Positions 12,215-57,665 of a stretch of DNA of 64,000 bases are shown here, one piece after another. The notes beneath the pieces were generated by a model, which was given only the letters and a program-made list of their open reading frames with translations, did no database searches and was not told where the DNA came from. The stretch is from Deltaproteobacteria bacterium (GTDB lineage: Bacteria > SAR324 > JACQKK01). The stretch spans positions 682,001 to 746,000 of the forward strand of contig JAOUEW010000001.1 in assembly GCA_029858505.1 (NCBI GenBank). Reading direction: 5' to 3'. The translations under genes were made by a program, and so were the position numbers. The first letter of the stretch is position 1, and each line of letters opens with the position of its first letter.

Positions 12215-12520
12215 GAACCTTCTGGGGGTGGGTTCCTCAACAGCACCCCCCTGCCCTTCCCTGCGGGCTTCCCCCTATAAAGCACCCCTGCCCTGCGGGC
12301 ATCCCCTCCCCTTCGTGGAGGGGAAATAAATCGAAACCGAAAAGGGATCAGCTTGCTTCCTTCCGGTTTTCACGAACAGAACAGATTCTATATCTTTATC
12401 CTTCGGCCTAAGCCGGCATTGCCCATCTCCGATGGGGAGGGGCAAACGCCCGAAGGGCGTTGGGGAGGGGTGCTTTAACGGTTGAAAAGAGTAGCCGGTG
12501 GATTCGAGTAAAGGAGGGGT
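12215..12520 (-). repeat. dispersed structured intergenic repeat, copy A
   Basis: Between uvrA and the seven-repeat protein. On the minus strand it reads ACTCGAATCCACCGGCTA, a CGCCCTTCGGGCG hairpin, GGAAGGAAGCAAGC, then CCCTCC-hairpin, GGGAGGGGATGCCC and GCAGGGCAGGGGTGC. The same order of blocks occurs near 25.5, 54.1 and 57.5 kb. It appears as one and a half units. No open reading frame of substance lies in this 464-base gap, so it is a non-coding repeat of REP/BIME type or a remnant of a small mobile element. Confidence 0.7.
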
Positions 12521-12587
12521 ATGGTGGGGAGCAATCTCAAAAATCTTACTAACGCACCTTCGCTGTCCTGCCTTCACGGCAGCAATT

Positions 12588-15404
12588 TTACGGCAGCACC
12601 TTCAGGGTAAAGGCAGCCCCGTAGGGGGTGGCGGTGCCGTCAACCCGCAGCCACACCTGCCCAAAGTCATCCACCGTCACCGAGCAAACCGCCCCCGGCA
12701 AGGTGGCACTGTTGGCCATGCAGGTCAGCTGCCGGTAATGGGGAGAGAACGCGTTCAGCGACAGGGCCCCCTCTGAGGATTCCAGGCTGACTTGCACCTC
12801 CCGTCCGGGCTCCAATCCTTCCACGATATAATGAGAGAAGGTGTTGTCCACCTGCCCCTGGTAGGGCAGGTGCTGGGTGATGTCCATGGGCAGGGAGGCT
12901 TCTCCCTCGGGGCGGGGGGCCGGGGAAACGTCGAGGGTAAAGTTGGCGGCCTTCAGGCCGTCCAGCCAAGTGGCATCGGCCAGCACGAACAGTTCCCCCG
13001 TTTCGCCGGTTTCCGCCAGGCATTGGTCGTCCATCCATTCGGTGCTGGCGCAGGCGGTTTGGCGAAAGGCCGGGTCCAGGTACACATACAGGTTCACGTC
13101 TCCATTCATGCGGCTGAGCTTCACCAAATAAGCGGTGTGCGGGACCAGCCCCCCCACTTGGTAATAACTGTTTTGCTCCATCACGCCGCCCCGGTAGGGC
13201 AGGCGGCCGGTAATCTCCGCCGGGTAGCCGGGGGCGCCCTCGCTCACCGGGGCTTCCTGCACGTCTACCCGATAGGTGGCCCCGCCGCTGGGGGCCCGGG
13301 TGGTGAGATACACTTGCCCCGCCGCACCCGCCCGGGTGACGCACCCCTGGGCATCGGCCCCGGCGGGGGCGGTGCCGGTGCAAGACGCCGCGGCGAAACT
13401 ATCGGCGGAGACCTCGTAGGCCACGTCGCCCTGGCGGCGGGTCAGGGCCACCATGTACACCCGAGAGGCCGACAGCCCAGAGGCCACGTAATAGCTGGCG
13501 GTGGCGTCCACTTGGCCTGGGAAGGGGGTGCGGCCGGTGATGTCTACCGGTTGAGACAGGGAGCCCTGATAGGTGGTGCTGCCGCCGCCAGCAGACGGCA
13601 CGGCGGTGAGGGTGTATTCTCCCCCGCCGCTTTGGGTGCCCCCGGCCAGCACATACAACAAGCCGTTGGGGTTGGCGTGGGCCCGGCAGGCTTCTGGCTG
13701 GGTGCCGGGCTTGGCCGAGGAACACAGGGGGGTGATGAACGGATCGGAATACAAGAACAGGTTGGCGTCGCCGGTGGGGTTATCCAGCCGCACTTGGTAA
13801 TAGCCCCCCGGCGTTAGGCCCGCCAGGGTGTAGTAAGAGAAGCTGGTGTCTACCTGGCCCCGGCGGCCCCGGCTGGCGTCTAAGGCCACGGGGGCGTTGA
13901 CCGAGCCTTCGTAGCGGGTGGCGGCGGGTCCGGCCTCGGCCACCAGCAAGGTGAACGAGGACCCCATGGGGGAGGGGCTTTCGGCCCGGATGTACAGTTG
14001 ACCAGAGGCATTGGCCACGGCCCGGCAGGTGCCCCCCCGGCTGGTCTCGGCAGAGGCCCCGCACAACAGCGAGCCAAAGCCGTCGGAGAACACCGACAGG
14101 TTGGTTTGCCCCCCCTGGGCCATGGCCCCCACCCGGTACACCCGGCCCGGAACCAAGCCCTCCACCACATAATGGGACCGACCCGCCCCGGCCTCTCCCT
14201 GAAAGGGCAGATGGTCGGCCGATAAGGGAATGGGGGCGATTTCGCTGCCCTGGCTGGCGTGGGTTTCCGCGGGGGTCACCGCCAAATGAAACACCGATCC
14301 TCCCATCCGTTGGGCGGCATCGCCCCCCACCCGAATCCACAGGTGCCCCTGGTCATCGGCCTTGGCCGTGCAGCTGCGGTCGGCAGAGCCCCGCAGCCCG
14401 CTGCCGCAGAACCCCGGCCCCCACAGGTCGTCCGGGTTGGGAATGAACAGGGTCAGGTCGTCTTCCAGGCCGGTCAGGTCCACCCGCACCACCTGCCGGG
14501 GGGCCAGGCCCTCCACCAGGTAATGGCTGGCGCTGGCGTCTACTTGGCCGCGGTGGGGCAGGGCCTGGGCGTCAAGCGCCAGGGGCTGACCGGGCCGCCC
14601 TTCCGGTTGGTAGCTATTGGGGCGAACATCCAGAACGTAGCCGCTGCCCCCGCCCGATTCTTGGCCGCTCACCCGGATGAACAGCCGCCCCTGGTCATCG
14701 GCCAGGGCGGCGCAGCTTTCTCCCTGGGCGGCAGGGTTGGCCGAGCCGCAGGCCAGCAGGCCGTCGAACCCCGCGTTTCGGTACACCAGCAGGTTCACGT
14801 TGCCAGTCAGCCCCGACAGGCTTACCCGGTAGGGCTTTCCGGGGGTCAGCCCCCCGGCCTGAAAGTAGGCGTCTCCCAGGCCGATGCGGCCCTGGTGGGG
14901 CAACTGCCCGGTGATGTCACGGGGTTCTCGTTTCTGGCCGGTTTCTCCCGGCAATAGCACCACCAGTTGGGCGTGACCCTCCACCGTGGAACCCGGCAGC
15001 GAGGCCGCCACCCCGGCCACTCCCGGGGCGGTGCCCTGGGCTTCTCCTGGGCTGGTGATGACCGCTACTTCTCGCTGTTCCACCCGCCACTCCAGCTGCC
15101 CGGTCAGGTCCCGGGTCGAGCCATCGGTATAGGTGCCCAGGGCGGTGAAACGCCAAGCCTGTCCAGAGGCCACGGTGGCGGCGGAGGGCATCAGGTGAAT
15201 TTCCACCAGCCCCTCCCCCTCGCGGGGCAGGTCAGAAGAAGGCGTAGACAATTGAGACAAGAACAGCCCCCCCGCCAGCCCCAGCACCACGGTGGGCACC
15301 ACCAGCGGGCCAATCCCGCCGTTCAGCCGAAACGCCTGGCGAACCGGCGATGGCTGGGCGGCTGGTTTCCGCTGAGATCTTGGCTTTCGGGGGGAAGGAG
15401 CCAT
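12588..15404 (-). CDS. membrane-anchored envelope protein with BIG2 domain and seven two-cysteine beta repeats
   Basis: A 938-residue protein of unknown role. A basic N-terminus is followed by one membrane segment near residues 31-52 (hydrophobic run after LNGGIGP), so it is probably anchored in the inner membrane facing the periplasm. Residues ~65-155 resemble a BIG2 Ig-like domain (GTYTDGSTRDLTG). Then seven ~105-residue repeats run to the end, each with a pattern LP-x-G-x-V-x-x-x-x-x-YxVxGL-xPG, a D/N-L-x-VY strand, and two cysteines about 15-25 residues apart that could pair as a disulfide. They recall pre-peptidase C-terminal (PPC) domains. The next upstream gene on the same strand also carries BIG2 domains, which suggests a shared surface role. 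Confidence 0.7.
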   Translation of the reverse strand: MAPSPRKPRSQRKPAAQPSPVRQAFRLNGGIGPLVVPTVVLGLAGGLFLSQLSTPSSDLPREGEGLVEIHLMPSAATVASGQAWRFTALGTYTDGSTRDLTGQLEWRVEQREVAVITSPGEAQGTAPGVAGVAASLPGSTVEGHAQLVVLLPGETGQKREPRDITGQLPHQGRIGLGDAYFQAGGLTPGKPYRVSLSGLTGNVNLLVYRNAGFDGLLACGSANPAAQGESCAALADDQGRLFIRVSGQESGGGSGYVLDVRPNSYQPEGRPGQPLALDAQALPHRGQVDASASHYLVEGLAPRQVVRVDLTGLEDDLTLFIPNPDDLWGPGFCGSGLRGSADRSCTAKADDQGHLWIRVGGDAAQRMGGSVFHLAVTPAETHASQGSEIAPIPLSADHLPFQGEAGAGRSHYVVEGLVPGRVYRVGAMAQGGQTNLSVFSDGFGSLLCGASAETSRGGTCRAVANASGQLYIRAESPSPMGSSFTLLVAEAGPAATRYEGSVNAPVALDASRGRRGQVDTSFSYYTLAGLTPGGYYQVRLDNPTGDANLFLYSDPFITPLCSSAKPGTQPEACRAHANPNGLLYVLAGGTQSGGGEYTLTAVPSAGGGSTTYQGSLSQPVDITGRTPFPGQVDATASYYVASGLSASRVYMVALTRRQGDVAYEVSADSFAAASCTGTAPAGADAQGCVTRAGAAGQVYLTTRAPSGGATYRVDVQEAPVSEGAPGYPAEITGRLPYRGGVMEQNSYYQVGGLVPHTAYLVKLSRMNGDVNLYVYLDPAFRQTACASTEWMDDQCLAETGETGELFVLADATWLDGLKAANFTLDVSPAPRPEGEASLPMDITQHLPYQGQVDNTFSHYIVEGLEPGREVQVSLESSEGALSLNAFSPHYRQLTCMANSATLPGAVCSVTVDDFGQVWLRVDGTATPYGAAFTLKVLP

Positions 15405-15603
15405 GGGGAAAGGAGTTCCGGCGAATCAAAAACAGCAAACCAGTTCAAATGTGAGGGATTTTCACGATAGTGGCCCCCAATCCATGGTTTGTCAAGGCAA
15501 CCCATGGGAATAGCCCATCTTGAGGGCGCAGAGGTCTCAAAGGGACACATCCAATGAATCGGTTGGCGGATGGTTTTAGCGTGAGAGGAAAAAGGAGACC
15601 TCT

Positions 15604-15643
15604 GCATCACCCAGGTTTTTGCCGTGAAAAGGAAGAATGGGGG
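15604..15643 (+). repeat. short repeat shared with 62735-62774
   Basis: The element GCATCACCCAGG-TTTTTGCCGTGAAAAGG and the following GAATGGGG match the copy at 62735-62774 at about 33 of 38 positions. Both copies are intergenic and in the same orientation, one after the BIG2 protein gene and one before the lpxL-like gene. Confidence 0.6.
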
Positions 15644-15650
15644 AGAAGAA

Positions 15651-15686
15651 ACAAGTGGGGCCAAGATCAAGTCTTGGCCCCACCTG
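15651..15686 (-). terminator. strong terminator after the BIG2 protein gene
   Basis: A 16-base arm containing GTGGGGCCAAGA pairs with TCTTGGCCCCAC across a short loop, with one mismatch near the base. On the minus strand it is followed by a T-rich run (TTGTTTCTTC). It lies 29 bases beyond the stop codon of the 1821-residue gene. Confidence 0.75.
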
Positions 15687-15714
15687 TATTTATTTGGGTT
15701 TCACCTTCACCCAT

Positions 15715-18700
15715 TCATAGTCTTGTTTTCACGTTCACCAACTTAGATGTGACCGACCCTGGCCGCCAGTCGGTGTAGGTGGCGGTGACGTCGCAGGTGT
15801 TGGCCGGGCTGGCCGACACCGACGTCACCAAACCAGAGGCGCTCACCGAAGCCACGGTGGGGGCGCTGGAGGCCCAAGTGAAGTTGGTCAACACCGAGTC
15901 TACCGTGCCGTCGCTGAAGGTGGCGGTGGCGGTCATTTGGCGGGTGTTGCCCACCGCTAGGTTGTTGATTTTGCCGGGTGTGATTCCTACCCGGGTGACG
16001 ATGGCGTTGGTGACGTTCACCGTGCCCGTCCCTGACACTGGGTTAAGCGCCGCGCCAATGGTGACCGGGGTTCCGGTGCCCCCGGCCCCCACGGCGGTGA
16101 CCACCCCCGCCGAGGTGACCGACGCCAGGGCGGTGTTGGAGGACGTCCAGGTAACCATGGTGGTCAGGTTGGCCACCGTACCGGCGGAGAAGGTTCCCGT
16201 GGCGGTCATGGCCTGGATTTGACCCTTGGCCAAGGTGACCGGGCTGGGGGTCACGGCGATGCTCACCAGGGTTTCGTTGGTGATGGTGAGGGCGGTTTGA
16301 CCCGACACCGCGATGTTGGGGTGGGTGGCGGTGAGGGTGACCGGTCCCCCGGCGCCCAGAGTAGTCACCAGCCCTGCGGCATTCACCGAGGCCAAGGCCG
16401 GATTGGACGAGGTCCAATTCACCGTCGTGGTCAGGTTCAGGGTACTGGCATCGGAGTAGGTTCCCGTGGCGGTATAGGCCTGCTGCACCCCCACCGGCAG
16501 AATGCTGTTGGCCGGGGTGAGGGCGATGCCGGTCAGGGTGGCCGCGGTCACCGTCAGGGTGCCAGTGGACCCGCCAGAGGCGGTGCTGGAGGTTCCGCTG
16601 ATGTTGGTGACCGGGTCCGTGGCATCAATGGTCACGGTTCCGGGAGACACTCCGCTGGCCAACCCGGTGGTGCTGATGGTGGCCACCCCTGGATTGCTAG
16701 AGGTCCAGGTCACCGAACTGGTGACGTCCACCGTGCTGGCATCGGAATAGGTGGCCGTGGCGGTGAAGGCGATGGGAATGCCCCCATTGGCTAGGGTGGG
16801 GGCCGACACCGCCGCTGGGGTGACGGTGATGAAGCTCAACGTGGCGTTGGCCACCACCATGGAGGCCGTGCCGGAGGTGCCGGTGGCCAGCCACACTGCC
16901 GTGATGACGGCGGTGCCCGCCCCCACCCCGCTGGCCAAGCCCGTGGAAGACACGGTGGCCACCGCCACATTGCTGCTGCTCCACTGCACCGCCGTGGTCA
17001 CATCCACCGAGGTGCCGTCGGAGTAGTTGGCGAAGGCCGAGAAGGCATGGGGCGACCCGCCGCTGGAAATTTTCACCGCGTTTACCGTGGCGGGAGAAAC
17101 CGTGATGCTGGACAAGCTGGCGGAGGTCACCGTGAACAGGGTGGAGCCGCTGACCCCGCCGTAACTGGCCGTGATGATCGCTCCCCCGGCCGACAGGGCG
17201 TTGGCCAAGCCCTGAGCGTTCACCGTGGCCACCGTGGTGCTGCCCGACGACCAAGACGAAATGGCCGTCAAGTCAAAGGACGTGCCGTCGGAGTAGTTCC
17301 CCATGGCGTTAAACTGCCTGGTTTGGCCAGGAGCCGTTTGGGGGTTGGTGGGGGTGACGGTGATGCTGTTCAGGGTGGCCGCCGTCACCGTCAGGTTGGC
17401 GCTGCCCAACTTGCCAGACAGGCTGGCGGTGATGGTGACCCCTCCAGCGGCAACCCCCAGGGCCAAGCCGGTGTTGTCCAGGGCAATGCCGTTGTTGCTG
17501 GAGGTCCAGGTGACCTGGTTCGTCACATCGGCCGAAGTGCCGTTGGAGTAATTGGCCGTGGCGGTGAACTGCTTGCTCAACCCCACCGGCAGGGTGGCGG
17601 AAGAGGGCGTGACCACGATGGTGTTCAGCACGGGGTTGGTGATGGTGGCCGTGCTGGCGGCTGTTTTGCCCGACAGCGAAGCGGTGATGACTGCCGTGCC
17701 CGCCGAGATGCCGGTAACCACGCCGTCGGCCCACACGATGGCCGCCGCGGTGTTGCCCGAGGTCCACGCCACATCCGGGGTGATGTCGCGGGATGTGCCG
17801 TCGGAGTAGTTGCCAGTGGCGGTGACCTGCCGGGTCAGCCCCGCCGCCATGCTAAAGGCCGACGGACTGACGGTGATGCTGGACAGGGTGGCCGCGTTCA
17901 CCACCACGTTGGCCGTTCCGGTGAAGCCCCCCATGCTGGCGCTGATGGAAACGCTCCCCGCCGCCACGCCGGTGACCAGGCCGGTGTTGTCTACAATGGC
18001 CGTGGCGGTGCTGCCAGTGGTCCAGGTGACCAGATCGGTAATATCCAAAGACTGGCCGTTGCTGTACACCCCGGTGGCGGTTAGGGGTTGGGTCAACCCA
18101 GCCACCAGGGTGCTGTTGGCCGGGCTGACGGCAATGCTTTGCAGGGTGGCCGACACCACCGTCAGGGTGACCGTGCCGGTGAACCCGCCATGGGCGGCGC
18201 TGATTTGCACGCTGCCAGCGGCCAAGCCGCTCACCACCCCCGCGGGGCTAATGGTGGCCACGGCCGTGTTGGCGGAACTCCAGGTGACCACATGGGTCAG
18301 GTCGCCAGAGGTGCCGTCCGAATAGGAGCCCCAGGCTTGAAGCGCCAGGGCTTGACCCGCCACCACCTGTGTTACGCCAGCCACAATGCTCACCCCGGTC
18401 AGGGCCGCGCTGGTCACCGTTAAGGTGGCGCTGCCGCTGGTGCCGCTCAGGGTGGCGGTGATGGTGGCGGTTCCCGCCCCCACGCCCGTGGCTAGCCCCG
18501 CGGCGTTCACCGTGGCGATGGCCGTGTTGGAAGAGGCCCACACCACCGTGGAGGTGACGTCGGCGGAGGTTCCGTTGGAGTAGTTGGCGGTGGCGGTGTA
18601 GGACACTGTTTGCCCTGCCGCCATGGACTTGGAGGAGGGGCTAATGGTGATGAAGCTTAGGCTGGCTGCCTGAACGGAAACGGTGGCACTTTTGCTCAGG

Positions 18701-21180
18701 CCAGAGCCCGCATGGGTGGCGGTGATGGACACCGTGCCCGCCCCAATTCCGCTCACCAGACCACTGGCCGATACCGTGGCCACCCCGGTGTTGGCCGAAC
18801 TCCAGGTGACCAGGGAGGTGATGTCGCGGCTAGAGCCGTCGGACCAGGTGCCGGTGGCGATGATTTGCTGGGTGCCGCCAGCGGGCAGGGTCGTGGCTGC
18901 TGGAAACAGGGTGATGGACGTCAGGGCGGCTCCGGTCACCGTCAGGGCGGCGGTGGACGTTTTGCCCCCCAGGGCGGCGGTGATGGTGACGGTTCCGGCC
19001 GAGATTCCGGTGGCCGTGCCCGCGGCGTTGATGGAGGCCGATCCGGTGCCCCCGGTGGCGCTCCAGGTGACCTGGGTGGTCACGTCAGCCGAGGTGCCGT
19101 CCATGTAAGTGCCGGTGGCGGTGAAGGCTTGTTGAAAGCCCACGGCCAGGCTGGCAGTGGCGGGCGTGACCGTGAGGAAGGACAGGGCCACCCCCGTTAC
19201 CGTGACCGAGGCCGTGTTCGACTTCCCGCCAAGGGATGCCGTGAGGGTGACGCTCCCCTGGCCGGTGGCGGTGGCCAGCCCCGTGCCATCCACCGTGGCG
19301 ATCAGGTTGTCCGACGACGTCCAGTTGACGGTGTTGGTCAGGTTGGCGGTGGAGTTGTCGGAGTAGGTGCCGGTGGCGGTCAACTGGGCCGTGGCGCCCT
19401 GCTGCAAGGTAACCGTGCCAGGGGTGACGGCAATGGATTGCAGCGTTTTGGCGGTGACCGTGAGGCTGGCGGAGCCAGACTTACCCGACAGGCTGGCGGT
19501 GAGGGTGGCCGTGCCGGTGCCTTGGGCGGTAGCCAGCCCGGCGGCACCCACCGTGGCGGTCAGGTTGTCCGACGATGTCCAGCTGACGGTGTTGGTCAGG
19601 TCAGCGGTGGTGGCATCGGTATAGGTCCCGGTGGCGGTCAGTTGTTGGGTCAGCCCCTTGGGCAGGCTGGCCGATGCCGGAGTGACGGCGATGGAAGACA
19701 ACGCTGCCGGAGTAACCGTGAGGCTGGCCGTGCCCGACTTGCCGGACAGGCTGGCGGTGAGGGTGGCCGTGCCCGTGCTGTGGGCGGTAACCAGCCCGCT
19801 GGCATCCACCGTGGCGGCCGGGTTGTTGGAGGATGTCCAACTGACGGTGTTGGTCAGGTCGGCGGTGGTGGCATCGGTGTAGGTTCCCGTGGCCGCCAAC
19901 TGCTGGGTCAGCCCCTTGGCCAAACTGGTGGCCCCTGGGGTGACGGCGATGGAGGTCAGCGCCGCTGGGGTCACGGTAAGGCTGGCGGTGCCCGACTGGC
20001 CGGACAGGCTGGCGGTGAGGGTGACGGTGCCGGTCGCCATGGCGGTGGCCAAGCCGGTTCCGTCAATCGTGGCGATGGCGTTGCTGCTGGATGCCCAGGT
20101 GACCGAGGAGGTGATGTCGACCGTGGTGCCGTTGTCGTAGCTGCCGCTGGCGGTGAAGGCCTGGGTGAGCCCCTTGGCCAAACTGGCGGTGCCAGGGGTG
20201 ACGGTAATCAATTGCAGGGCCGGGGCGGTGACCGTGAGGGCGGCAGAGCCGCTGCGGCCCCCCAGGGTGGCGATAAGGGTGGTGCTGCCTGGGCTAACCA
20301 TGGTTGCCAGCCCGGCGCTGTCTACCGTGGCGATGGAGGTATTGCCGGAAGACCAGGTGACGGAACCGGTGATGTCCACCGTGGAGCCGTTGGAGTAACT
20401 TCCGCTGGCGGTCATTTGTTGGGTTAACCCCTGGGGCTTGGAGAGCGGGTCGGGGGTGAGGGTAATCAACTGCAGCACGGCGGCGCTGCCGGTGATGGAC
20501 GAAGTGTTGGATACACCCCCCAGGGTGGCGGTGATCACGGCCGTGCCGGTGCCGGTGGCGGTGACCACGCCCGCGGAGTTGACCGTGGCCACGGCGGTGT
20601 TGCTGCTGCTCCAAGTGACGGAACCGGTGATGTCTGGGGATGAGCCGTCGGAGTAGTGCCCCTGGGCGCTCAATGGCTGGGTCAGGCCGATGGGCAGGGT
20701 GGCCGAGCCGGGAGAAACGGTGATGGAGTTCAACTGAGCGGCGGTGATGGTGAGGCCGGTGGAACCGGAAACTCCGTCCAAGTCTGCCGTCACGGCCACG
20801 GTTCCGGCGGTGCCGGTGGTCAGCAGGCCAGCGCTGTTGATGGAAGCCGTGCCAGTGCCAGGGGTGACCCCCCAGGTAACCTGAGCGGTGATGTCGCTGG
20901 TGGTGCCGTCGGAGTAGCTTCCTTGGGCGGTGTAGGCTTGGGTAAGCCCAGCGGCCAGCGAGGCCCCCGCCGGGGTCACGGCGATGGATTGCAGTGTGGC
21001 CCCGCCTCCTCCTCCACCTCCACCTCCCCCGCCGCTGGAACATGCCGAAAGGCTAACCGTGAGGGCCGCCGCTAGGGCGGCCTGGGCCAACCGTTTGCCG
21101 GTGAATCCGGCCATCTTTTCTGCCCATTGGGCCAAGGCAGAAATGGGGAAAACAAACGCAACTGAAGTAAGCGGGGCCAT
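15715..21180 (-). CDS. giant putative lipoprotein with about 20 BIG2 (bacterial Ig-like) repeats
   Basis: An 1821-residue extracytoplasmic protein. The N-terminus has a long leader ending in the lipobox LSAC (residues 44-47), then SS and eleven glycines, then about 20 tandem repeats of roughly 85-90 residues. Each repeat starts like SIAVTP-x4-L-x-GLTQ, continues with TA-G-x-YSDGT-x-D-T-x-V-TW-SS, and ends with ATVNxxGLATGxxxGTxTITASLxG. BIG2 domains form adhesive rods in intimins and other surface proteins; here the rod would be tethered to a membrane by the lipid. The start at 21180 has AAGGA upstream; an inner ATG at 21114 gives a more standard signal peptide but lacks a ribosome site. Repeats 4-7 are nearly identical and prone to recombination. 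A strong terminator follows. Confidence 0.9.
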   Translation of the reverse strand: MAPLTSVAFVFPISALAQWAEKMAGFTGKRLAQAALAAALTVSLSACSSGGGGGGGGGGGATLQSIAVTPAGASLAAGLTQAYTAQGSYSDGTTSDITAQVTWGVTPGTGTASINSAGLLTTGTAGTVAVTADLDGVSGSTGLTITAAQLNSITVSPGSATLPIGLTQPLSAQGHYSDGSSPDITGSVTWSSSNTAVATVNSAGVVTATGTGTAVITATLGGVSNTSSITGSAAVLQLITLTPDPLSKPQGLTQQMTASGSYSNGSTVDITGSVTWSSGNTSIATVDSAGLATMVSPGSTTLIATLGGRSGSAALTVTAPALQLITVTPGTASLAKGLTQAFTASGSYDNGTTVDITSSVTWASSSNAIATIDGTGLATAMATGTVTLTASLSGQSGTASLTVTPAALTSIAVTPGATSLAKGLTQQLAATGTYTDATTADLTNTVSWTSSNNPAATVDASGLVTAHSTGTATLTASLSGKSGTASLTVTPAALSSIAVTPASASLPKGLTQQLTATGTYTDATTADLTNTVSWTSSDNLTATVGAAGLATAQGTGTATLTASLSGKSGSASLTVTAKTLQSIAVTPGTVTLQQGATAQLTATGTYSDNSTANLTNTVNWTSSDNLIATVDGTGLATATGQGSVTLTASLGGKSNTASVTVTGVALSFLTVTPATASLAVGFQQAFTATGTYMDGTSADVTTQVTWSATGGTGSASINAAGTATGISAGTVTITAALGGKTSTAALTVTGAALTSITLFPAATTLPAGGTQQIIATGTWSDGSSRDITSLVTWSSANTGVATVSASGLVSGIGAGTVSITATHAGSGLSKSATVSVQAASLSFITISPSSKSMAAGQTVSYTATANYSNGTSADVTSTVVWASSNTAIATVNAAGLATGVGAGTATITATLSGTSGSATLTVTSAALTGVSIVAGVTQVVAGQALALQAWGSYSDGTSGDLTHVVTWSSANTAVATISPAGVVSGLAAGSVQISAAHGGFTGTVTLTVVSATLQSIAVSPANSTLVAGLTQPLTATGVYSNGQSLDITDLVTWTTGSTATAIVDNTGLVTGVAAGSVSISASMGGFTGTANVVVNAATLSSITVSPSAFSMAAGLTRQVTATGNYSDGTSRDITPDVAWTSGNTAAAIVWADGVVTGISAGTAVITASLSGKTAASTATITNPVLNTIVVTPSSATLPVGLSKQFTATANYSNGTSADVTNQVTWTSSNNGIALDNTGLALGVAAGGVTITASLSGKLGSANLTVTAATLNSITVTPTNPQTAPGQTRQFNAMGNYSDGTSFDLTAISSWSSGSTTVATVNAQGLANALSAGGAIITASYGGVSGSTLFTVTSASLSSITVSPATVNAVKISSGGSPHAFSAFANYSDGTSVDVTTAVQWSSSNVAVATVSSTGLASGVGAGTAVITAVWLATGTSGTASMVVANATLSFITVTPAAVSAPTLANGGIPIAFTATATYSDASTVDVTSSVTWTSSNPGVATISTTGLASGVSPGTVTIDATDPVTNISGTSSTASGGSTGTLTVTAATLTGIALTPANSILPVGVQQAYTATGTYSDASTLNLTTTVNWTSSNPALASVNAAGLVTTLGAGGPVTLTATHPNIAVSGQTALTITNETLVSIAVTPSPVTLAKGQIQAMTATGTFSAGTVANLTTMVTWTSSNTALASVTSAGVVTAVGAGGTGTPVTIGAALNPVSGTGTVNVTNAIVTRVGITPGKINNLAVGNTRQMTATATFSDGTVDSVLTNFTWASSAPTVASVSASGLVTSVSASPANTCDVTATYTDWRPGSVTSKLVNVKTRL

Positions 21181-21828
21181 GACAGGTTCCTTTCAATGCC
21201 TTCTCACCTTGGGTTTCTCCGGTTCCCCTGATTTCATCCACCCAGCCATGACAATAGCCCGGCAGAAGGGATCAACCCTGGTTTCCGACGTTGGTGTTGG
21301 ATGAACATACATATATAGTACCTTTTTATGAATTACGTTGTCAATATGACATATATTTCTTACAAAAAATTACCCCCGTGTTAGTTCGTCCTTAAAAATC
21401 ACAGGTGTGTTTCAGGTCAGTCTTCAAATTCTCTTGCAAGCCACTGATCGGCTATATATTTATATTTCCCATCCCCCATCCCATTCTCTCTTTCTCTCTT
21501 TCTCTCTTTCTCCTTGGATTGACTGCCAAAACCAAAATCACAACGCTGTCAGAAAATATATCCCGTAAGAAAAAGATATCCTGTCAAATCAGACCTTTTT
21601 ATTCGTATTTCCTAGGAAGAAATAACGGGTTTTTCTCTGGCAGGTTCCCTAGGCTGGCCATCCCCATGGTGGCGGGGTGCCGTAGGGCAGAGGGGCCAAA
21701 ATTCATCTTGGCCCCGAATTTAGCGCTGGGGACGGGCGGCGTTAGCCGCCAGGGAGAGGTGTTATTGTGGATGGGAATGACTCTCATATGGCGGGTGACG
21801 TGACCTTGAGGATTCACCAACGTTTATT
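21181..21828. other. long AT-rich intergenic region with a microsatellite and hairpins
   Basis: This ~650-base gap precedes both the BIG2 lipoprotein (minus) and marR (plus). It holds an AT-rich stretch (21300-21380) likely to contain promoters, a TTTCTCTC microsatellite at 21485-21513, the hairpin GGGGCCAA/TTGGCCCC at 21692-21715 and a GGCGGCG/CGCCGCC-type stem near 21733-21750. A 132-codon reading frame at 21405-21803 crosses these elements and looks accidental. No gene is supported. Confidence 0.6.
21692..21715. repeat. hairpin matching the terminator at 15651-15686
   Basis: GGGGCCAA and TTGGCCCC pair over an eight-base loop. The arms equal the core of the stem found after the BIG2 gene, so near-identical hairpins flank this 5.5-kb gene on both sides. 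Confidence 0.6.
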
Positions 21829-21868: not shown

Positions 21869-21874
21869 CATTCT

Positions 21875-22360: not shown

Positions 22361-22363
22361 CCC

Positions 22364-23185: not shown

Positions 23186-23268
23186 ATCTAATTTTCCCCA
23201 ATTGTAAGCCAGAAGGAAGCAATCACCTCATCCATCGGAGACGAGTCATGGGGGACAGAACTTCGGGC

Positions 23269-24737: not shown

Positions 24738-24781
24738 GGGTGACCAAAGGTGGAGGGTTTAAGGGAGAAAACCAGCGGCAG

Positions 24782-25469: not shown

Positions 25470-25770
25470 ATTCCTCGAATCCCCCGGCTACTCTTTGTCA
25501 TCCGTTCAGCGGGTGAAGACTGGACGGAAGCACCCAACCCACCGGCTTCATGCCATTCCCAACAGCACCCTTCCCTGCCGCCTTTCAGGCGGCTGTCCCT
25601 CCCCATCGGAGAGGGACTTTACTCGAATCCATCGGCTATGCGATTCATCCATTCAGTGGGTGAAAACTGGATGGAAGCAAGCACATCACCTTCCGGACTC
25701 AACTCATTTCTCCTTCCCATCGGGGAGGGGATGCCCCGCCAGGGGCAGGGGTGGGGTTCCGATCGGGGCG
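25470..25770 (+). repeat. dispersed structured intergenic repeat, copies B and C
   Basis: Two units in tandem. Each has CTCGAATCC near its start (25474 and 25622), a hairpin (25498-25516, TCATCCG/CGGGTGA; 25644-25664, TTCATCC/GGGTGAA), then GGACGGAAGC or GGATGGAAGCAAGC, and a G-rich tail with GGGGAGGGGATGCCCC and GGGGCAGGGGTGG. Stem sequences differ between copies yet keep pairing. Non-coding. Confidence 0.75.
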
Positions 25771-38852: not shown

Positions 38853-38862
38853 ATAGCACGAA

Positions 38863-44983: not shown

Positions 44984-45037
44984 CAACGGGTTCCTGGATG
45001 GGGGTTCCTCCCAGGGTTCCGGTTTTTTCCGGGCAGG

Positions 45038-46537: not shown

Positions 46538-46613
46538 GGGTACATCCTACTATGAGAGCAGAGCGTTTTAAAATCCGTCTAAAATATATGGTAGGATTTT
46601 CACTTGAACCATA

Positions 46614-46651
46614 TTTTTTCCACTCTTCTTTTTTCCACTCTTCTTTTTTCC
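46614..46651 (+). repeat. 15-base pyrimidine tandem repeat before the second uvrA
   Basis: TTTTTTCCACTCTTC occurs twice in a row (46614-46643) and a third copy begins (46644-46651). The tract ends about 22 bases before the uvrA ATG, which has no Shine-Dalgarno. It resembles the purine-rich tract at 31.4 kb read on the other strand. Confidence 0.8.
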
Positions 46652-46672
46652 CCATTCCTTTCCCCCGCGCCC

Positions 46673-49537
46673 ATGAGCCAAGATCAATTTCGGGAAGGCT
46701 GGATCCACATCCGGGGCGCCCGCCAGCACAACCTGAAGAACATCACCGTGTCCTTTCCCAGGGACCGGCTGGTGGGAGTGTCTGGCCCTTCAGGGTCGGG
46801 CAAGTCTACCCTGGTGTTCGACACCCTCTACGCGGAAGGGCAGCGCCGCTATGTGGAGGCCCTGTCTCCCTCGGCCCGGCGTTACCTAACCCGGCTAGAC
46901 AAACCCGACGTGGACGACATTGAGGGGCTGCGCCCGGCCATTGCCGTGGAGCAGGGAGGCTGGGCGGGGGGGCCTCGCTCCACCGTGGGCACCGCCAGCG
47001 AGCTGCACGATTTTCTGCGGCTGCTGTTCGCCCGCTTGGGGGTGCCCCACTGCCACCGCTGCGGCCATTCCATGGCGGCTCACACCGTGCAGCAAATGGT
47101 AGACGCCCTGCTGGAAGGCGGGCCCCAGGGCAAGCTGATGGTGCTGGCCCCCCTGGACTGGGGGGAGGAACTGGACTGGGGGGCCTGGGCCGACCGCTGG
47201 CGACGGGAGGGCTTTGCCCGGCTGCGGGTGGGGGGGAAGGTGGTGGGCCTGGAGCCGCCGCCGCCAGCCCCGGCCCCCGGACAAACGGTGGAACTGGTGG
47301 TGGACCGGTTGACCCTGGAGGGCGTGGACCGCCAGCGGCTGACCGAAGCGGTGGAACTGGCGGCCCGCCATGGCGGCGGGCGGGTGGTGGCGGCGGTGCA
47401 GCCGGGTCAAACCGGGTCGGGGTCAGACACCTGGAGCGATCACACGTTTAGTTTGACCCCCCGCTGCGGTAGCTGCGGCTTGGTGTATCCAGAGCCCCAC
47501 CCTCGGCTGTTCTCGTTCAACTCTCCCCACGGGGCCTGTCCGGCCTGCCACGGCCTGGGCACCACCGAGCGGGGAGAAGAATCTCTGGTGATCCCCGACC
47601 CCCAGCGCAGCCTGGCGGAAGGGGCTGTGGCCCCCTGGGAGGGAAAAGCGTCCACTGGTCATCGGGCCATGCTGGAACAACTGGCCGACCACTACAAGTT
47701 CAGCCTGCTGGCCCCCTGGAGCAGCCTAGCCTCCCAACACCAGCAAATCATTTTGCATGGGTCTGGCCAGGAGGAACTGACTTTTCAATGGCCGGGGGCG
47801 GGCAAGCGGCATACCTTCACCCGTCCCTTCGAGGGCGTCATCCCTTCCTTGGAGCGCCGGGTGCGGGGCCAGGAATCCCCGGCGGTGCGGGAAAGCCTGC
47901 GGCGGTTTCTGAAAACCGAAACCTGCCAAACCTGCGGCGGGGGGCGCCTGCGGGCCGAGGCGTTGCACACCCAAATTGGCGGTGAAAACATCGCTCAGGT
48001 TTGCCGCAAGCCCCTCCCCCAAGCCTTGGAATGGATTATTCAACTGGCCGCCCCGCCAGGAATGGAAGAAGTGGCCCGGCGGCTGCGGGAAGAAATTTCC
48101 GCCCGGCTGGGTTTTTTGCTGGGGGTGGGGCTGGATTACCTGACCCTGGAACGGCGGATGGATTCAGTAAGCGGAGGAGAGGCCCAGCGCATTCGGCTGG
48201 CCACCCAGTTGGGGGGGAAACTCAGCGGGGTGATCTACATTCTGGACGAACCCACCATTGGGCTGCACCCCCGAGACACCCGCCGCCTGTTGGAACAGTT
48301 GGAAGCCCTGGTGCGGGCGGGTAACACCGTGGTGGTGGTGGAGCACGACCGAGACACCCTGGGGGCCGCCCAATGGTTGGTGGAAATTGGCCCAGCGGCG
48401 GGGGAGGCGGGGGGAAACCTGGTGGCCATGGGCACCCCGGCCCAGTTGGCGGCCCTGGGCCAGGCCTCTCCCACCGGGGCGTACTTGGCCGGAACCCGCC
48501 AAGTGCGCCGCCCCCGGCCCCGGCCCCCGGCCCGGCGGCAGTTGGTGCTGCGGGGGGCGAACCGCCACAATTTATCGGGAGAAGACGCGGCCTTTCCCCT
48601 GGAGCGGTTTGTGTGCGTCACCGGGGTGTCGGGTTCGGGCAAAAGCTCGTTGGTGTTAGACACCCTCTTTCCGGCGTTGTCTCAGGCCCTGGCTGGCGGC
48701 CCCCTGGAAGGACCCGGTTGGAAAGGCCTGGAGGGAGCCCAATACCTGGACAAGGTCATCTACGTGGATCAGGGGCCCATTGGCGCTTCGGCCCGTTCCA
48801 ATCCGGCGACCTTTGTGGGGGTGTTCAATTTAATCCGCGAGAACTTTGCCCTGACCCCAGAGGCCCGCCGCCGGGGTTACACCGCCCGGCGCTTCAGTTT
48901 TAATGCCGATGGGGGCCGCTGCGGGGCCTGCGGGGGAGAGGGCCAGCGGCGGATTGAGATGCATTTTCTCCCCGATGTGCATGTGCGCTGCGAGGCTTGC
49001 CAGGGAACCCGCTACAACCGGGAAACCCTGGATGTGCGTTACCGGGGCAAAACCATTGCCGATGTGCTGAACATGACCGCGGCCCAGGCCCTGGCGTTCT
49101 TCGCGGCGGTGCCGCCCATTCGCCAGCGGCTAGAGCCCCTGGAACAGGTGGGCCTAGGGTACTTAAAATTGGGCCAGCCCGCCCCCACCCTGTCGGGGGG
49201 GGAAGCCCAGCGGCTGAAGATTGCCCGGGAACTGGGCCGGGGAGAAAGCGGCCGGGGAGAGCGGATGTTGTACCTGATGGACGAGCCCACCACCGGGCTG
49301 CACTTTGAGGACGTGGAGCGGCTGATGGCGGTGCTGCACCGGCTGGTGGAGGGCGGGGCCTCGCTGGTGGTGATTGAGCACAACCTGGATATGATTGCCG
49401 GAGCCGACTGGGTGATGGACCTGGGGCCGGAGGGCGGCCAGGGCGGGGGGCGGGTGGTGGCCCAGGGCACCCCGGCGGACCTGGCCGCCGCCCTGACCCA
49501 CACTGGCCGGGCCCTGGCCCCCCTGCTCAAATCTTAG
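46673..49537 (+). CDS. UvrA paralogue, single-length
   Basis: A 954-residue UvrA-family ATPase, distinct from the double-length UvrA at 6.1-12.1 kb. It has two ABC units (Walker A GPSGSGKST and GVSGSGKSS; signatures SVSGGEAQR and TLSGGEAQR) and the zinc pairs CHRCGHS, CGACGGEG and CEACQGT. The segment IAVEQGGWAGGPRSTVGTA differs from the canonical IDQK-x-x-x-x-NPRSTV, so the interaction region is altered. The start at 46673 is chosen over a TTG at 46604, which would translate the pyrimidine repeat. It may be a class II/UvrA2-type protein for a subset of lesions or drugs. trpD follows after 97 bases. Confidence 0.9.
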   Translation: MSQDQFREGWIHIRGARQHNLKNITVSFPRDRLVGVSGPSGSGKSTLVFDTLYAEGQRRYVEALSPSARRYLTRLDKPDVDDIEGLRPAIAVEQGGWAGGPRSTVGTASELHDFLRLLFARLGVPHCHRCGHSMAAHTVQQMVDALLEGGPQGKLMVLAPLDWGEELDWGAWADRWRREGFARLRVGGKVVGLEPPPPAPAPGQTVELVVDRLTLEGVDRQRLTEAVELAARHGGGRVVAAVQPGQTGSGSDTWSDHTFSLTPRCGSCGLVYPEPHPRLFSFNSPHGACPACHGLGTTERGEESLVIPDPQRSLAEGAVAPWEGKASTGHRAMLEQLADHYKFSLLAPWSSLASQHQQIILHGSGQEELTFQWPGAGKRHTFTRPFEGVIPSLERRVRGQESPAVRESLRRFLKTETCQTCGGGRLRAEALHTQIGGENIAQVCRKPLPQALEWIIQLAAPPGMEEVARRLREEISARLGFLLGVGLDYLTLERRMDSVSGGEAQRIRLATQLGGKLSGVIYILDEPTIGLHPRDTRRLLEQLEALVRAGNTVVVVEHDRDTLGAAQWLVEIGPAAGEAGGNLVAMGTPAQLAALGQASPTGAYLAGTRQVRRPRPRPPARRQLVLRGANRHNLSGEDAAFPLERFVCVTGVSGSGKSSLVLDTLFPALSQALAGGPLEGPGWKGLEGAQYLDKVIYVDQGPIGASARSNPATFVGVFNLIRENFALTPEARRRGYTARRFSFNADGGRCGACGGEGQRRIEMHFLPDVHVRCEACQGTRYNRETLDVRYRGKTIADVLNMTAAQALAFFAAVPPIRQRLEPLEQVGLGYLKLGQPAPTLSGGEAQRLKIARELGRGESGRGERMLYLMDEPTTGLHFEDVERLMAVLHRLVEGGASLVVIEHNLDMIAGADWVMDLGPEGGQGGGRVVAQGTPADLAAALTHTGRALAPLLKS

Positions 49538-49634
49538 CCCGTTGCCATCCCCCGGCGGTTTCATGCATTCTTTGGGTTCCTATGGTCTCTCTCACACCCT
49601 GGTCTCTCTCAACCCCCTATTCTTTGGAACAACC

Positions 49635-50678: not shown

Positions 50679-50683
50679 GAGCC

Positions 50684-51496: not shown

Positions 51497-51527
51497 TCGT
51501 TTGATTTGGCCATCCAGGAGAAACGTC

Positions 51528-52157: not shown

Positions 52158-52273
52158 GAGTAGCAGGGGGCCGGGGCAAGAAGGGGGAAGGGGCGGGGAA
52201 CAAAGCATTTCAAAAGGTATTGAAAATACCCAAACGTGAATCTTCATAATGACCAGAGCAAGTTGAATCTTTT

Positions 52274-53916: not shown

Positions 53917-54350
53917 GGCGGTAACCTCGCATAAGAGGAAGGCGTCTAAGAGGATCGAGTTTTAGAGGAAAGAGCAATCGGATAAACCAACGGGCGAAAA
54001 ATAGCGACAATAATTATCCTTTATCTAGTCAATAATTACGAAAAAAAACAAGGCGCCAGGGAGGGGGCTTTCACGGAGGAGGAGAATGGCCAAAAGCACC
54101 CCGCTCCTGCCCTATGGGTATCCCCTCCCCGAGGGGAAAGGCATGAGGCCGGGAAGTGATGCGCTTGCTTCCGTCCAGTTTTTTCATCCAAACAAGTGAA
54201 AAGAATCACCAATGGATTCGAGTATCGGGACAGGCGGCGCTGGCCGCCAGAGAGGGGGGCTTTACGGGTATGCTTGCGGGGCAGGGATATTGCTGGGGAG
54301 GGAGGTATTTCAGGCCGCCAACCGGCCAGTGGCAACCAGGCCGGGAAAAA
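53917..54350 (-). repeat. intergenic region holding dispersed repeat copy D
   Basis: The repeat occupies about 54085-54260 and reads on the minus strand ACTCGAATCCATTGG, a stem TTTTCA/TGAAAA (54181-54202), GGACGGAAGCAAGCGCATCAC, a CCCCTC/GAGGGG hairpin, GGGGATACCC and a GGGGTGC tail. A GGCGGCG-type stem with GCCAGAGAG (54227-54250) matches one at 21733-21757. The part from 53917 to 54060 is AT-rich and likely carries the promoter of the DUF6765-like gene. No gene is supported in these 434 bases. Confidence 0.7.
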
Positions 54351-55487: not shown

Positions 55488-55885
55488 GGGGGTCGCCTTC
55501 GATGAGTTCGTGGAAAATGCGTAAATGGTTCAGGCTTATCTGGATATTCTAGACGTTTAGGGTCGGGATGAAAACCCTGGCGAAAACTTAACCCCCGCTC
55601 CCTGGCCCCCTTTCAGGGTGGGCCATTCTTTCAGCGCATACAAACATGTTACAGGATTTTTTCTCCTACGCCCAATCCCCCATGGGAGAAACCCCAGGGA
55701 ACGTTTCTGTTGGCGTGTATGGGAAGGTGGCATCCCCGGATTTATTGGTCTTTCCCACCAGGGGGTTCCTGGAGTGGGCAGGAGGACATAGAAAGATGAC
55801 ATGAGCCGTGGACGGGCTTTCACCCCCCCAAACATGCAACCCCACCATGAAAAACGAACATGACCCGCCAGATGTTCCGCTGAAT
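55488..55885. other. intergenic region without recognised features
   Basis: This 398-base gap lies between cheZ and the LysM protein, both on the minus strand. It contains scattered short stems (CCCTGG/CCAGGG-type near 55590-55620, ACATGT near 55646) and the cheZ leader. A 92-codon minus-strand frame at 55557-55835 has no family features and is not called. Confidence 0.5.
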
Positions 55886-57214
55886 TTACTTATTCGGAGG
55901 AACTTTGAACTCTTGATCGGGGTAGATCAAATCGGGGTCCTGAATGTTTTTCTTGTTGTTGTTCCAAATGGCTGGCCAATTCACCGGGTCTTTGTAGTAC
56001 CGGCGGCTGATATCCCACAGGGTATCCCCCCGTTTCACTTTATGGGTGGTTTCCTCTCCCAAGCTGCCCGCGGCTTTTTTCTGCCCACGGGCCGAGGCAG
56101 GGGATTCTTTGGGGCGAATGCCGCCGGTTTGGCCGCCCTGCCGGGGGCCGGTCCCTTTGCCCTGGGCATTCCCCGCGCCTGGGGAAGTGTTTTGGCCTGT
56201 GCCATCGGTTTGGGCCGTGGTGTCGCCCTCCGAGGTGCCCTTGTCAGAGTCTTGGCCAGACAACGCCCAAATACCGATCACCAGGGCCAGGGCAATTCCC
56301 GCCGCGGTGGCGATCCAAACTTTTTGAGAGGTCTCTCCACTGGGTGCCTTCGCGGAGGGTTCTTCGGAAACGGTTTCCGGTTGGGCTGCCTTGGCGGCTT
56401 CCGCAGCCTGGGCGGCGGCTTGTTTGCTGGCCGACTTGCCGCTTTTTGAGGACGGACGCAGGCCTGCCGAGCGGGTCAGCCCCCCGGTCATGGCGGTGCG
56501 GCGGCTCATGATTAAGGCCATGCGGTCTTCAGCCGACTCAGACCCGCGAGATTCTCTTCCCCCAGAGGTGTGATCGGCCCGGTCTTTCAGGGTTTCCAAC
56601 CGGTCCCGCAGGTGTTCGGTCAGGTCGGTGGTCATTTGCCGCAGTTTTTCATCCCGCTGGGTGAAAAGCGACAAGGTCATCTTCAGGTCGGGGATAACGG
56701 CCCCGGCCAGCAGAATGGAGGCAATCTCTTCGTCGGTACGGTTCAGGTTGTCGTTTTTCCCTGGGCCGTTCAAGTAGGCAATGATGCGGGCTTCCAGCAT
56801 GATCCGGTTGTGGGCCAATTGCAGAATGGTGGTCACCCGGAAGGCATCGTACAGCGCCAGGGTTTGATCGGGGGTAATGCCCTTCAGCACGCCCACCGGG
56901 GCATCCAGCAGTTGGCGGGGAGAAAGCACCATGGCTTCTTCCCGCAGGGTGAATTTCAGTTTCCGCCGCTGGGCAATTTCTTCCACCGAGGTGGTGGTGT
57001 TGGATCCCATTTGCACCGCCAATTCCTGCACCCCCAATGCCCACAGGAAAAACGGCAGGTTGGCCAACTGGTGAACCGTGGTGATGCGAAAAAACTTTTC
57101 CATGATCTGGCTTTGAGATTCTCCCACCCCCTGGAAACAGGTGATGGGGGCTTCTAGCAGCTTGGAAAGGGGCAGGGTTCGATACTGCGCGTGAACCTCA
57201 TAATCCAGTGCCAT
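55886..57214 (-). CDS. LysM-domain membrane protein with helical N-terminal domain
   Basis: A ~442-residue protein. Residues ~10-170 contain two helix-hairpin-like repeats (LLEAPITCFQGVGESQSQIMEKFFRITTVHQLANLP and LLDAPVGVLKGITPDQTLALYDAFRVTTILQLAHN), similar to the DUF4332 or helix-hairpin-helix pattern. A charged coiled region follows, then one membrane segment (WIATAAGIALALVIGIWAL), a Gly/Thr/Gln-rich linker and a C-terminal LysM domain (KVKRGDTLWDISRRYYKDP) that binds peptidoglycan in the periplasm. So the N-terminus is cytosolic and the LysM is outside, as in FimV-like or cell-pole organisers. Starts at 57214 (GGAG), 57244 and a GTG at 57253 are all possible. Confidence 0.75.
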   Translation of the reverse strand: MALDYEVHAQYRTLPLSKLLEAPITCFQGVGESQSQIMEKFFRITTVHQLANLPFFLWALGVQELAVQMGSNTTTSVEEIAQRRKLKFTLREEAMVLSPRQLLDAPVGVLKGITPDQTLALYDAFRVTTILQLAHNRIMLEARIIAYLNGPGKNDNLNRTDEEIASILLAGAVIPDLKMTLSLFTQRDEKLRQMTTDLTEHLRDRLETLKDRADHTSGGRESRGSESAEDRMALIMSRRTAMTGGLTRSAGLRPSSKSGKSASKQAAAQAAEAAKAAQPETVSEEPSAKAPSGETSQKVWIATAAGIALALVIGIWALSGQDSDKGTSEGDTTAQTDGTGQNTSPGAGNAQGKGTGPRQGGQTGGIRPKESPASARGQKKAAGSLGEETTHKVKRGDTLWDISRRYYKDPVNWPAIWNNNKKNIQDPDLIYPDQEFKVPPNK

Positions 57215-57476
57215 ACCGGGGTCTCCGAGGGGGGTGGGGGGCATTGTTTTCACACTTCCTTGACACTTTCCTATTCTGCAAGAAAAATCAACATCTTTCG
57301 TGCGTATTCCCGGTTTTTTTCCGGCCCGCTTTGCGTGTGTAAATAAACCCTTTGTTTTTTCTTTAAATCTCTGGCCTTGCGGCAGAAACCATCGGTTAAA
57401 AAGAAGCTGGGAATGGGGAGCTGCCCCAGATCACTAAAAAATGTGATCTGAGGAAGCCTGAGAAAGAGCACTCCTC
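57215..57476. other. promoter-side region of the LysM gene with a strong inverted repeat
   Basis: AT-rich sequence with a perfect eight-base inverted repeat CAGATCAC/GTGATCTG (57427-57450, loop TAAAAAAT). It could be an operator or a stem-loop for the LysM gene; no coding region is supported here. Confidence 0.45.
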
Positions 57477-57665
57477 CCTATACTCGAATCCATCGGCTAT
57501 TCTATTCATCCGTTCGGATGATGACGCCGGAAGGAAGCCAGCAGATACCTTGTTGGATGTAAGTGGATGAAGCCGGAAGGAAGTAAGCGCATAACCCATC
57601 GGCTTCGATTTGTTTTCCCTCCAGGAAGGGGAGGGGAGGCTCAGGGGGCAGGGGTGCTGTTGGGG
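57477..57665 (+). repeat. dispersed structured intergenic repeat, copies E and F
   Basis: Contains ACTCGAATCCATCGGCTA at 57482, the stem TCATCC/GGATGA (57506-57521), GCCGGAAGGAAGCCAGC, then a second half-unit with GCCGGAAGGAAGTAAGCGC, ATTTGTTTTCCCTCC and GGGGAGGGG-type tail ending GGGGCAGGGGTGC. Same family as copies at 12.2, 25.5 and 54.1 kb. Non-coding. Confidence 0.7.

What the first reader, a model, noticed from the sequence alone, without database searches (positions are those of the whole stretch)
12215..57665. Structured dispersed repeat family with compensatory changes
At least five intergenic sites (12.2, 25.47, 25.62, 54.1, 57.5 kb) share an ordered block set: ACTCGAATCCATCGGC, a short hairpin, GGAAGCAAGC, and a G-rich tail GGGGAGGGGATGCCC. 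The hairpin arms differ between copies (TCATCC/GGATGA, TCATCCG/CGGGTGA, TTCATCC/GGGTGAA, TTTTCA/TGAAAA) but still pair, which points to selection on structure at RNA or DNA level.
Basis: seen in the sequence. Interest (0 to 1): 0.7.

Follow-up and report, generated by a model that had tools for sequence, protein, structure and literature searches.

The report
Hairpin-capped BoxC/PIT-type DNA repeat family

Summary
The repeat family is real. Its conserved 84-nt core has 150 matches in the genome (all candidates scored; 12 repeat on a duplicate contig) and one marginal match in 57 related genomes. It and its reverse complement are BoxC/PIT-type intrastrand-triplex motifs (Y arm, R1, loop, R2), placed as inverted pairs around the core. 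Their second loop is usually replaced by a hairpin that does covary: 52 of 60 distinct loops have a stem of 4 bp or more. Caps are mostly GNA or GNNA (38 of 52), known or recalled as unusually stable in DNA, on the G-rich strand. Hairpin-bearing motifs with other stems occur in six same-family genomes. No RAYT/Y1 or DDE_Tnp_1 transposase was found. Best reading: a lineage-specific composite of BoxC/PIT elements, structured at DNA level and probably spreading passively at stalled replication. New variant of a known kind; function unproven.

The parts
12477..12509 (-). 5' part of core A (model positions 1-33), split copy
   Evidence: nhmmer E 1.6e-5; sequence
12422..12471 (+). G-rich triplex-type module inside the split core: Y arm CCCATCTCC, R1 GGGGAGGGG, hairpin AACGCCC-GAA-GGGCGTT, R2 GGGGAGGGG
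   Evidence: R1-hairpin-R2 at 12434-12471; the same five-part row; positions read
12330..12386 (-). 3' part of core A (model positions 27-83)
   Evidence: nhmmer E 1.2e-9
12284..12325 (-). G-rich module: Y arm, R1 GGGGAGGGG, hairpin TGCCC-GCA-GGGCA, shortened R2
   Evidence: grammar scan hit at 12324
25474..25549 (+). core A copy (diverged)
   Evidence: nhmmer E 2.2e-12
25567..25616 (-). G-rich module, inverted: Y TCCCTCTCC, R1 GGGGAGGGA, hairpin GCCGCCT-GAA-AGGCGGC, R2 AGGGAAGGG
   Evidence: grammar scan
25621..25702 (+). core A copy (best in window)
   Evidence: nhmmer E 5.2e-20; CM 88.7 bits
25710..25756 (+). G-rich module: Y CTCCTTCCC, R1 GGGGAGGGG, hairpin TGCCCC-GCCA-GGGGCA, R2 GGGGTGGGG
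54145..54223 (-). core A copy
   Evidence: nhmmer E 7.2e-18
54098..54141 (-). degenerate G-rich module after the core
   Evidence: loosened scans only
57482..57561 (+). core A copy
   Evidence: nhmmer E 2.6e-19
57563..57610 (+). second, 3'-half core copy (model positions 36-84)
   Evidence: nhmmer E 1.6e-8
57615..57655 (+). degenerate G-rich module after the core
   Evidence: loosened scans only
21728..21760 (+). decayed solo G-rich module, hairpin GGCGGC-GTTA-GCCGCC
   Evidence: loosened scan and sequence; weak
23202..23246 (+). decayed 3' part of core A
   Evidence: nhmmer E 8e-4, sequence; weak

Best explanation
A lineage-specific composite repeat made of BoxC/PIT-type (class II intrastrand-triplex) modules placed as an inverted pair around an 84-nt core: [reverse-complement module]-core-[module], often with several cores in tandem about 150 nt apart. 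Each module, on its G-rich strand, is Y arm - short loop - R1 - hairpin - R2. Proposed working: when that strand is single (lagging-strand template, or extruded under supercoiling), Y and R1 pair, the second loop folds into a very stable GNA/GNNA-capped hairpin, and R2 folds back along R1 as a third strand (or, with R1, into a G-quadruplex). The knot pauses polymerases. I infer that the family has no transposase of its own and grows by template switching, slippage and recombination at such pauses, and persists where it does least harm, in gaps between gene 3' ends. Shown: anatomy, copy number, module grammar, stem covariation, cap motif, mirror symmetry, gene context, lack of two transposase families tested. 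Inferred: the fold in the cell, polymerase pausing here, the spreading mechanism, near-neutrality.
For: Copy number: 150 core matches in the genome (all candidates scored; 12 repeat on duplicate contig C11). Module grammar: 175 hits in 383,312 fetched bases v 0 in reversed and 0 in block-shuffled sequence; a slightly looser scan finds 3 of the 4 E. coli BoxC motifs in two yardstick loci, and 1 hit in five 12-kb stretches of this genome taken away from cores. Y arm: 102 of 109 distinct modules found without asking for it have one matching R1 at 7 of 9 or more, v 4 shuffled. Hairpin: mean outer stem 3.97 bp v 2.36 (sd 0.09, max 2.70 of 500 shuffles); 65 of 105 distinct loops at least 4 bp v mean 19, max 31. 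Caps: 27 GNA and 11 GNNA of 52 stems. Third strand: R1 end and R2 start co-segregate, 66 A-A and 65 G with G or T, 0 discordant of 131; mirror match beats direct match 116 to 28 with 84 ties of 228, or 104 to 25 with 99 ties if T.AT is allowed. Relatives: hairpin-bearing modules with other stems. Context: 39 convergent, 47 tandem, 11 divergent of 97 placed clusters v 36, 99, 36 of 171 gaps without a core; p 0.001 for convergent. Transposases: no Y1_Tnp or DDE_Tnp_1. Precedent: PMC4666352 (abstract, section 3 part 1, sections 12, 14, 16 and found passages).
Against: No experiment. The published TM-ECO pattern has a 3-nt second loop and the ITxF search allows 1-6 nt (PMC4666352), so hairpin modules fall outside it; by that paper earlier work found no promoter, terminator or in vivo effect of PIT elements, and in vivo footprinting suggested folding only to a minor extent or briefly. 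All 109 modules are also G-quadruplex-capable. Copies are related, so tests that treat them as independent overstate significance; the A-A/G-G split may reflect two ancestral types. The core has no convincing structural covariation and no assigned role. The grammar hits are from stretches picked around cores, and only two window modules pass the strict grammar.
Confidence: 0.6

Rival explanations
1. G-quadruplex with a hairpin in its long central loop (a quadruplex-duplex hybrid), not a triplex. R1 and R2 supply four G-runs; the Y arm is merely the remains of a palindrome.
For: All 109 distinct modules have four G-runs of at least 3. The run lengths next to the hairpin match each other.
Against: The Y arm stays complementary to R1 in 102 of 109, which a quadruplex does not need. 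The mirror placement of A between R1 and R2 (116 v 28, 84 ties) is a triplex expectation. D-type modules (R1 GGGAGAGGGGG, R2 GGGGGGTGAGG) suit a quadruplex less well (judgement, not tested).
Confidence: 0.25
2. The hairpin covariation reflects mutation, not selection: polymerase template switching inside a palindrome rewrites one arm from the other, keeping stems perfect without any function.
For: The mechanism is described in print (PMC8794818, abstract and start of the introduction seen). Stems are short, GC-rich and mostly perfect, and copies are tandem and mosaic.
Against: It does not by itself explain why caps are GNA/GNNA in 38 of 52 and in 20 of 29 stems of relatives, on the G-rich strand, nor why the A pattern of R2 mirrors R1.
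Confidence: 0.35
3. MITE: a non-autonomous transposon with terminal inverted repeats, moved by a transposase in trans.
For: The core ends are complementary (82.8% of cells paired over 10 positions), module tips GGGGTGCTGTT / AACAGCACCCC are inverted, and copy number is high.
Against: No Y1_Tnp and no DDE_Tnp_1; one rve-domain frame on contig C7, not examined for core ends. Other transposase families were not searched, and target duplication was not tested.
Confidence: 0.2
4. A family of structured RNAs or RNA-level signals (terminators, stability hairpins).
For: Enriched in convergent gaps.
Against: No Rfam match in the element, no convincing core covariation, little orientation bias in tandem gaps (51 same, 38 opposite), 7 of 11 distinct GNNA caps are not GNRA; [quoted passage not shown]
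Confidence: 0.08

Closest known systems
BoxC / PIT elements / TM-ECO (intrastrand class II triplex motifs), PMC4666352
   Same: Y-R-R order on one strand, intergenic, both orientations, inverted pairs (five of 18 E. coli K-12 regions in that paper); D-type modules here (CCCTCTCTTCGGGAGAGGGGGCGGGGGGTGAGG) resemble the E. coli type B sequence; short-loop forms occur in the window genome (7 matches) and in 8 of 57 other genomes.
   Different: Here the usual second loop is a hairpin, 14-20 nt long, with GNA/GNNA cap, beyond the 1-6 nt the published finder allows; modules flank an 84-nt core; tips read GGGGTGCTGTT.
REP / BIME with RAYT transposase
   Same: High-copy palindromic intergenic mosaics, often in tandem.
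   Different: No Y1/RAYT transposase in the genome; units are longer. The GTAG-type tag of REPs was not tested.
MITEs
   Same: Inverted complementary ends, short, high copy number.
   Different: No partner found among the transposase families searched (Y1_Tnp 0, DDE_Tnp_1 0; rve 1, unlinked as far as seen); target duplication not tested.
GNA-capped DNA hairpins (d(GNA) triloops)
   Same: Cap sequence and C-G closing pair; PMC5815330 (passages seen) gives Tm 68.9 C for the CG-closed d(GCA) hairpin v 48.9 C for the GC-closed one. The GNNA DNA tetraloop and the phage N4 promoter hairpins are recalled, not read.
   Different: Those are model oligonucleotides or phage promoters, not parts of a triplex-type repeat.

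Membership tests
BoxC/PIT class II intrastrand triplex motif | Y arm - loop - R1 - loop - R2 in order on one strand | tested here: met
   175 grammar hits v 0 and 0 in controls; Y arm in 102 of 109 modules found without it; a looser scan detects 3 of 4 E. coli motifs
BoxC/PIT class II intrastrand triplex motif | R2 mirrors R1 (G.GC, A.AT, T.AT triads) | tested here: met
   Mirror beats direct 116 to 28, 84 ties of 228; 0 discordant of 131 at the R1 end / R2 start
BoxC/PIT class II intrastrand triplex motif | Second loop of 3 nt (TM-ECO) or 1-6 nt (ITxF) | tested here: not met
   The B and C modules have a 14-20 nt hairpin second loop. Only the rarer D-type modules come near the short-loop condition: 7 loose-pattern matches; strict TM-ECO consensus 0 in the fetched stretches. 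So the hairpin modules work like, but are not, TM-ECO as published
BoxC/PIT class II intrastrand triplex motif | Folds as a triplex | not testable with these tools
   Needs CD, NMR or probing
BoxC/PIT class II intrastrand triplex motif | Intergenic location | tested here: met
   97 of 118 clusters lie in gaps between called ORFs, 11 at stretch edges, 10 overlap an ORF call, several at ORF ends; ORF calling is crude and discards short ORFs lying in repeats
REP/BIME | RAYT (Y1_Tnp) in the genome | tested here: not met
   0 candidates; control rings in 5 of 14; genome 97% complete
MITE | Terminal inverted repeats | tested here: met
   Core ends 82.8% of cells paired
MITE | Target-site duplication | not tested
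   Only sequence beyond one tip was listed; the two flanks of a copy were not compared and no empty sites are available
MITE | Partner transposase | tested here: inconclusive
   Y1_Tnp 0, DDE_Tnp_1 0, rve 1 on contig C7; other families not searched
Structured RNA family | Covariation of the core's helices above control | tested here: not met
   two weaker measures lean the other way (7 v 4.3 pairs changed on both sides, 35 of 500; 19 v 15.6 pair types, 15 of 500)

The most novel reading that the evidence does not exclude
A previously undescribed DNA module, conserved by structure rather than sequence across a bacterial family: a triplex- or quadruplex-forming purine scaffold nucleated by an interchangeable GNA/GNNA-capped hairpin, acting as a single-strand DNA signal (polymerase pause or protein landing site) that copies itself through replication.
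Probability: 0.25. Interest if true: 0.75.

Novelty: new variant of a known kind. Interest (0 to 1): 0.55.

Why it matters
Whether BoxC/PIT motifs fold in cells, and why they are kept, is open. Here nature has varied stem, cap and third strand within one genome and between genera while keeping the rules, so the structure can be tested by natural variation. It also shows that compensatory change in repeats may reflect DNA-level hairpins or template switching rather than RNA. The hairpin type would be missed by the published triplex finder, which allows loops of 1-6 nt.

Tried and rejected
RNA gene: the Rfam gathering scan found only two tRNAs and the SRP RNA in the window; the core alignment gives -0.92 kcal/mol. 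The covariance model R1 therefore carries only 6 pairs and works mainly as a sequence profile. RAYT: none. IS partner: DDE_Tnp_1 none, rve one match in an 808-aa open frame on C7. Horizontal spread: one exact-pattern scan of the genome collection gave 11 stretches with one match each in varied taxa, near what I reckon chance gives (own arithmetic); exact patterns in viral contigs gave 0 for the module and 1 for the core, with no module visible beside it in the 401 bases read; plasmids gave no match for 25540-25760; the phage collection was not searched. The first ORF-context attempt counted spurious ORFs inside repeats as genes and was replaced. A loosened window scan for modules gave mostly chance matches, so only those beside cores or with a clear hairpin were kept. 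Searching 77 genomes of another phylum for long-second-loop motifs gave matches in 8, by eye mostly short-loop or tandem forms and few if any GNA hairpins.

Rows dropped before counts: C11 from most script counts (two fetched loci identical to C6; the C11 tail not in C6 was kept); 46 of 93 seeds without a compact 3' end, then 8 of 47 for similarity above 92% or being the reverse strand of another, leaving 39. In one search, 67 of 68 matches of relatives were used; one overlapping G015 match was left out. One search printed 13 of 28 contig ends near a core; I had typed a wrong end for C2, and the count by hand is 12. The binomial p-values treat loops as independent and are not used. The relatives search used stricter filters (over 40 genomes).
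Full report
Observation. The five sites exist and are more than chance. Among 57 other genomes (relatives, mostly same class) two have a single match at 1 mismatch. A profile of the 84-nt core (39 dereplicated copies; model R1) finds 150 matches at E up to 0.01, all the candidates scored, so more may exist; 12 of them repeat on contig C11. The same 57 genomes give one marginal match (G026, E 0.004; stricter filters). In 383,312 fetched bases nhmmer finds 224 pieces, 134 near full length.

Anatomy. The core reads ACTCGAAKCCATCGG...GGAAGCAAGC...CGGMTTCGAGT. In the rows seen (its output was cut) it is commonly preceded by a C-rich block ending GAGAGGGACAAT and followed by TATTTCCCCTCCACGAAGGGGAGGGGATGCC...GGCAGGGGAGGGGTGCTGTT, or by another C-rich block and a second core. 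The C-rich block is the reverse complement of the G-rich block, so the core sits between inverted copies of one module. Shortened and swapped versions abound, cores without modules and modules without a listed core occur too. At least 12 of 28 contig ends lie within about 160 nt of a core (by hand), so the copy count may be low.

Compensatory change in the core. Outer and inner helices together: 83.2% v 82.9%, covariation 0.114 v 0.115; two weaker measures lean the other way (pairs changed on both sides 7 v 4.3, reached by 35 of 500; pair types 19 v 15.6, reached by 15 of 500). The short hairpin CAWCCG/CGGWTG: 66.2% v 63.7%, reached by 41 of 500, its covariation score by 31 of 500. So the core ends are complementary in consensus but do not covary convincingly; at pair 8/80, the most variable of the outer helix, 23 of 39 do not pair.

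What the G-rich module is. Its order C-rich arm, purine tract, loop, purine tract is that of BoxC/PIT motifs, described as class II intrastrand triplexes (PMC4666352: abstract, section 3 part 1, sections 12, 14 and 16, and found passages). A grammar scan gave 175 hits in the fetched stretches, 0 in two controls; only two of them are in the window. A slightly looser scan detects 3 of the 4 E. coli motifs in two K-12 loci, and one hit in five 12-kb stretches away from cores. In the E. coli locus at 164.5 kb two motifs face each other across a short spacer, as D-type modules do here. The Y arm is retained in 102 of 109 modules found without it. R2 mirrors R1 rather than repeating it (116 v 28, 84 ties). 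The base ending R1 and the base starting R2 agree in all 131 modules (66 A-A; 65 with G against G or T; 86 distinct: 45 and 41). In effect the second and third G-runs are both three or both four long; copies are related, so this may be few events.

The hairpin. Between R1 and R2 most modules carry a hairpin. Over 105 distinct loops the outer stem averages 3.97 bp v 2.36 shuffled, and 65 reach 4 bp v 19 (this set includes chance and short-loop matches). With stricter anchors 52 of 60 distinct loops have 4 bp or more, with 25 stem strings, some only length variants, such as GGCGGC, GCCGCCT, TGCCCCC, GGCACC, GGTGCC, TGCCTGC, AACGCCC and GCCGTCC. Caps are GNA in 27 and GNNA in 11 of 52; by copies, 107 of the 127 with a stem, of 138 in all. 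GNA triloops closed by C-G are unusually stable in DNA (PMC5815330, passages seen); the GNNA DNA tetraloop is recalled. Seven of 11 distinct GNNA caps are not GNRA. The caps read GNA on the same G-rich strand that a purine-motif triplex would use.

Relatives. Short-loop motifs occur in the window genome (7) and in 8 of 57 others, up to 20 in one. Exact ATGCC-type hairpin modules were found only in the window genome of the 58 searched (60, control 0). A looser long-second-loop pattern gives 167 in the window genome and one or two matches in each of four others; a BoxC-like one gives 13 in the window genome and matches in eight others, most in G001 (32) and G015 (14). Of 44 distinct genome-loop pairs from these relatives, 29 have a stem of 4 bp or more, v 8.7 mean and 15 maximum for 200 letter shuffles, and 15 have none; 20 of the 29 are capped GNA or GNNA. 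Six same-family genomes carry such stems (G001, G005-G009); G015 has stems with other caps. In two relatives a module tip also reads GGTGCTGTT (L159, L160), and inverted pairs surround other, shorter spacers. So the hairpin module seems older than the core, which I found only in this genome.

Context. Of 118 clusters, 97 lie in gaps with both neighbours called: 47 tandem, 39 convergent, 11 divergent, v 99, 36 and 36 of gaps without a core in the same stretches (p 0.001 for convergent, 0.05 for divergent). Eleven lie at stretch edges and 10 overlap an ORF call. In tandem gaps 51 cores follow and 38 oppose the genes. ORF calling was simple.

Mechanism. Best supported: DNA-level folding of the G-rich strand. 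Not settled: triplex v quadruplex, and whether stems are kept by selection or by template switching (PMC8794818, abstract and start of introduction seen). Spread without a transposase is inferred from the absence of Y1_Tnp and DDE_Tnp_1, tandem growth and mosaic structure; other transposase families were not searched. Print: I found no description of hairpin second loops in PIT/BoxC motifs in the listings of searches, which cover open-licence papers only.

Noticed in passing
window 6097-12123 (-) and 46604-49537 (+): Two UvrA-type genes; the first is 2008 aa with two UvrA interaction-domain matches, apparently a doubled UvrA, the second 977 aa (Pfam). The 12.2 kb repeat lies just upstream of the doubled one.
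   Followed up: partly
window 15715-21180 (-): 1821-aa protein with 17 bacterial Ig-like (Big_2) stretches at a period of mostly 258 nt.
   Followed up: partly
Could be acquired DNA, a binning error or a compositional domain.
   Followed up: partly
G000:C6 and C11: The two contigs share matches at identical positions, and two pairs of fetched loci are identical: an assembly duplicate or strain variant.
   Followed up: partly
L143 (E. coli K-12, 164.5 kb) and D-type pairs of the window genome: The E. coli BoxC pair and the D-type pairs here have similar layout, including a spacer containing ATCA.
   Followed up: no
G015 (same order): A relative with 20 short-loop motifs and a different second-loop stem, ACCG-NNNN-CGGT, without the GNA cap.
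   Followed up: no
G000:C7:30992-31321 (L161): Only rve-type (integrase core) match in the genome, within an 808-aa open frame.
   Followed up: no
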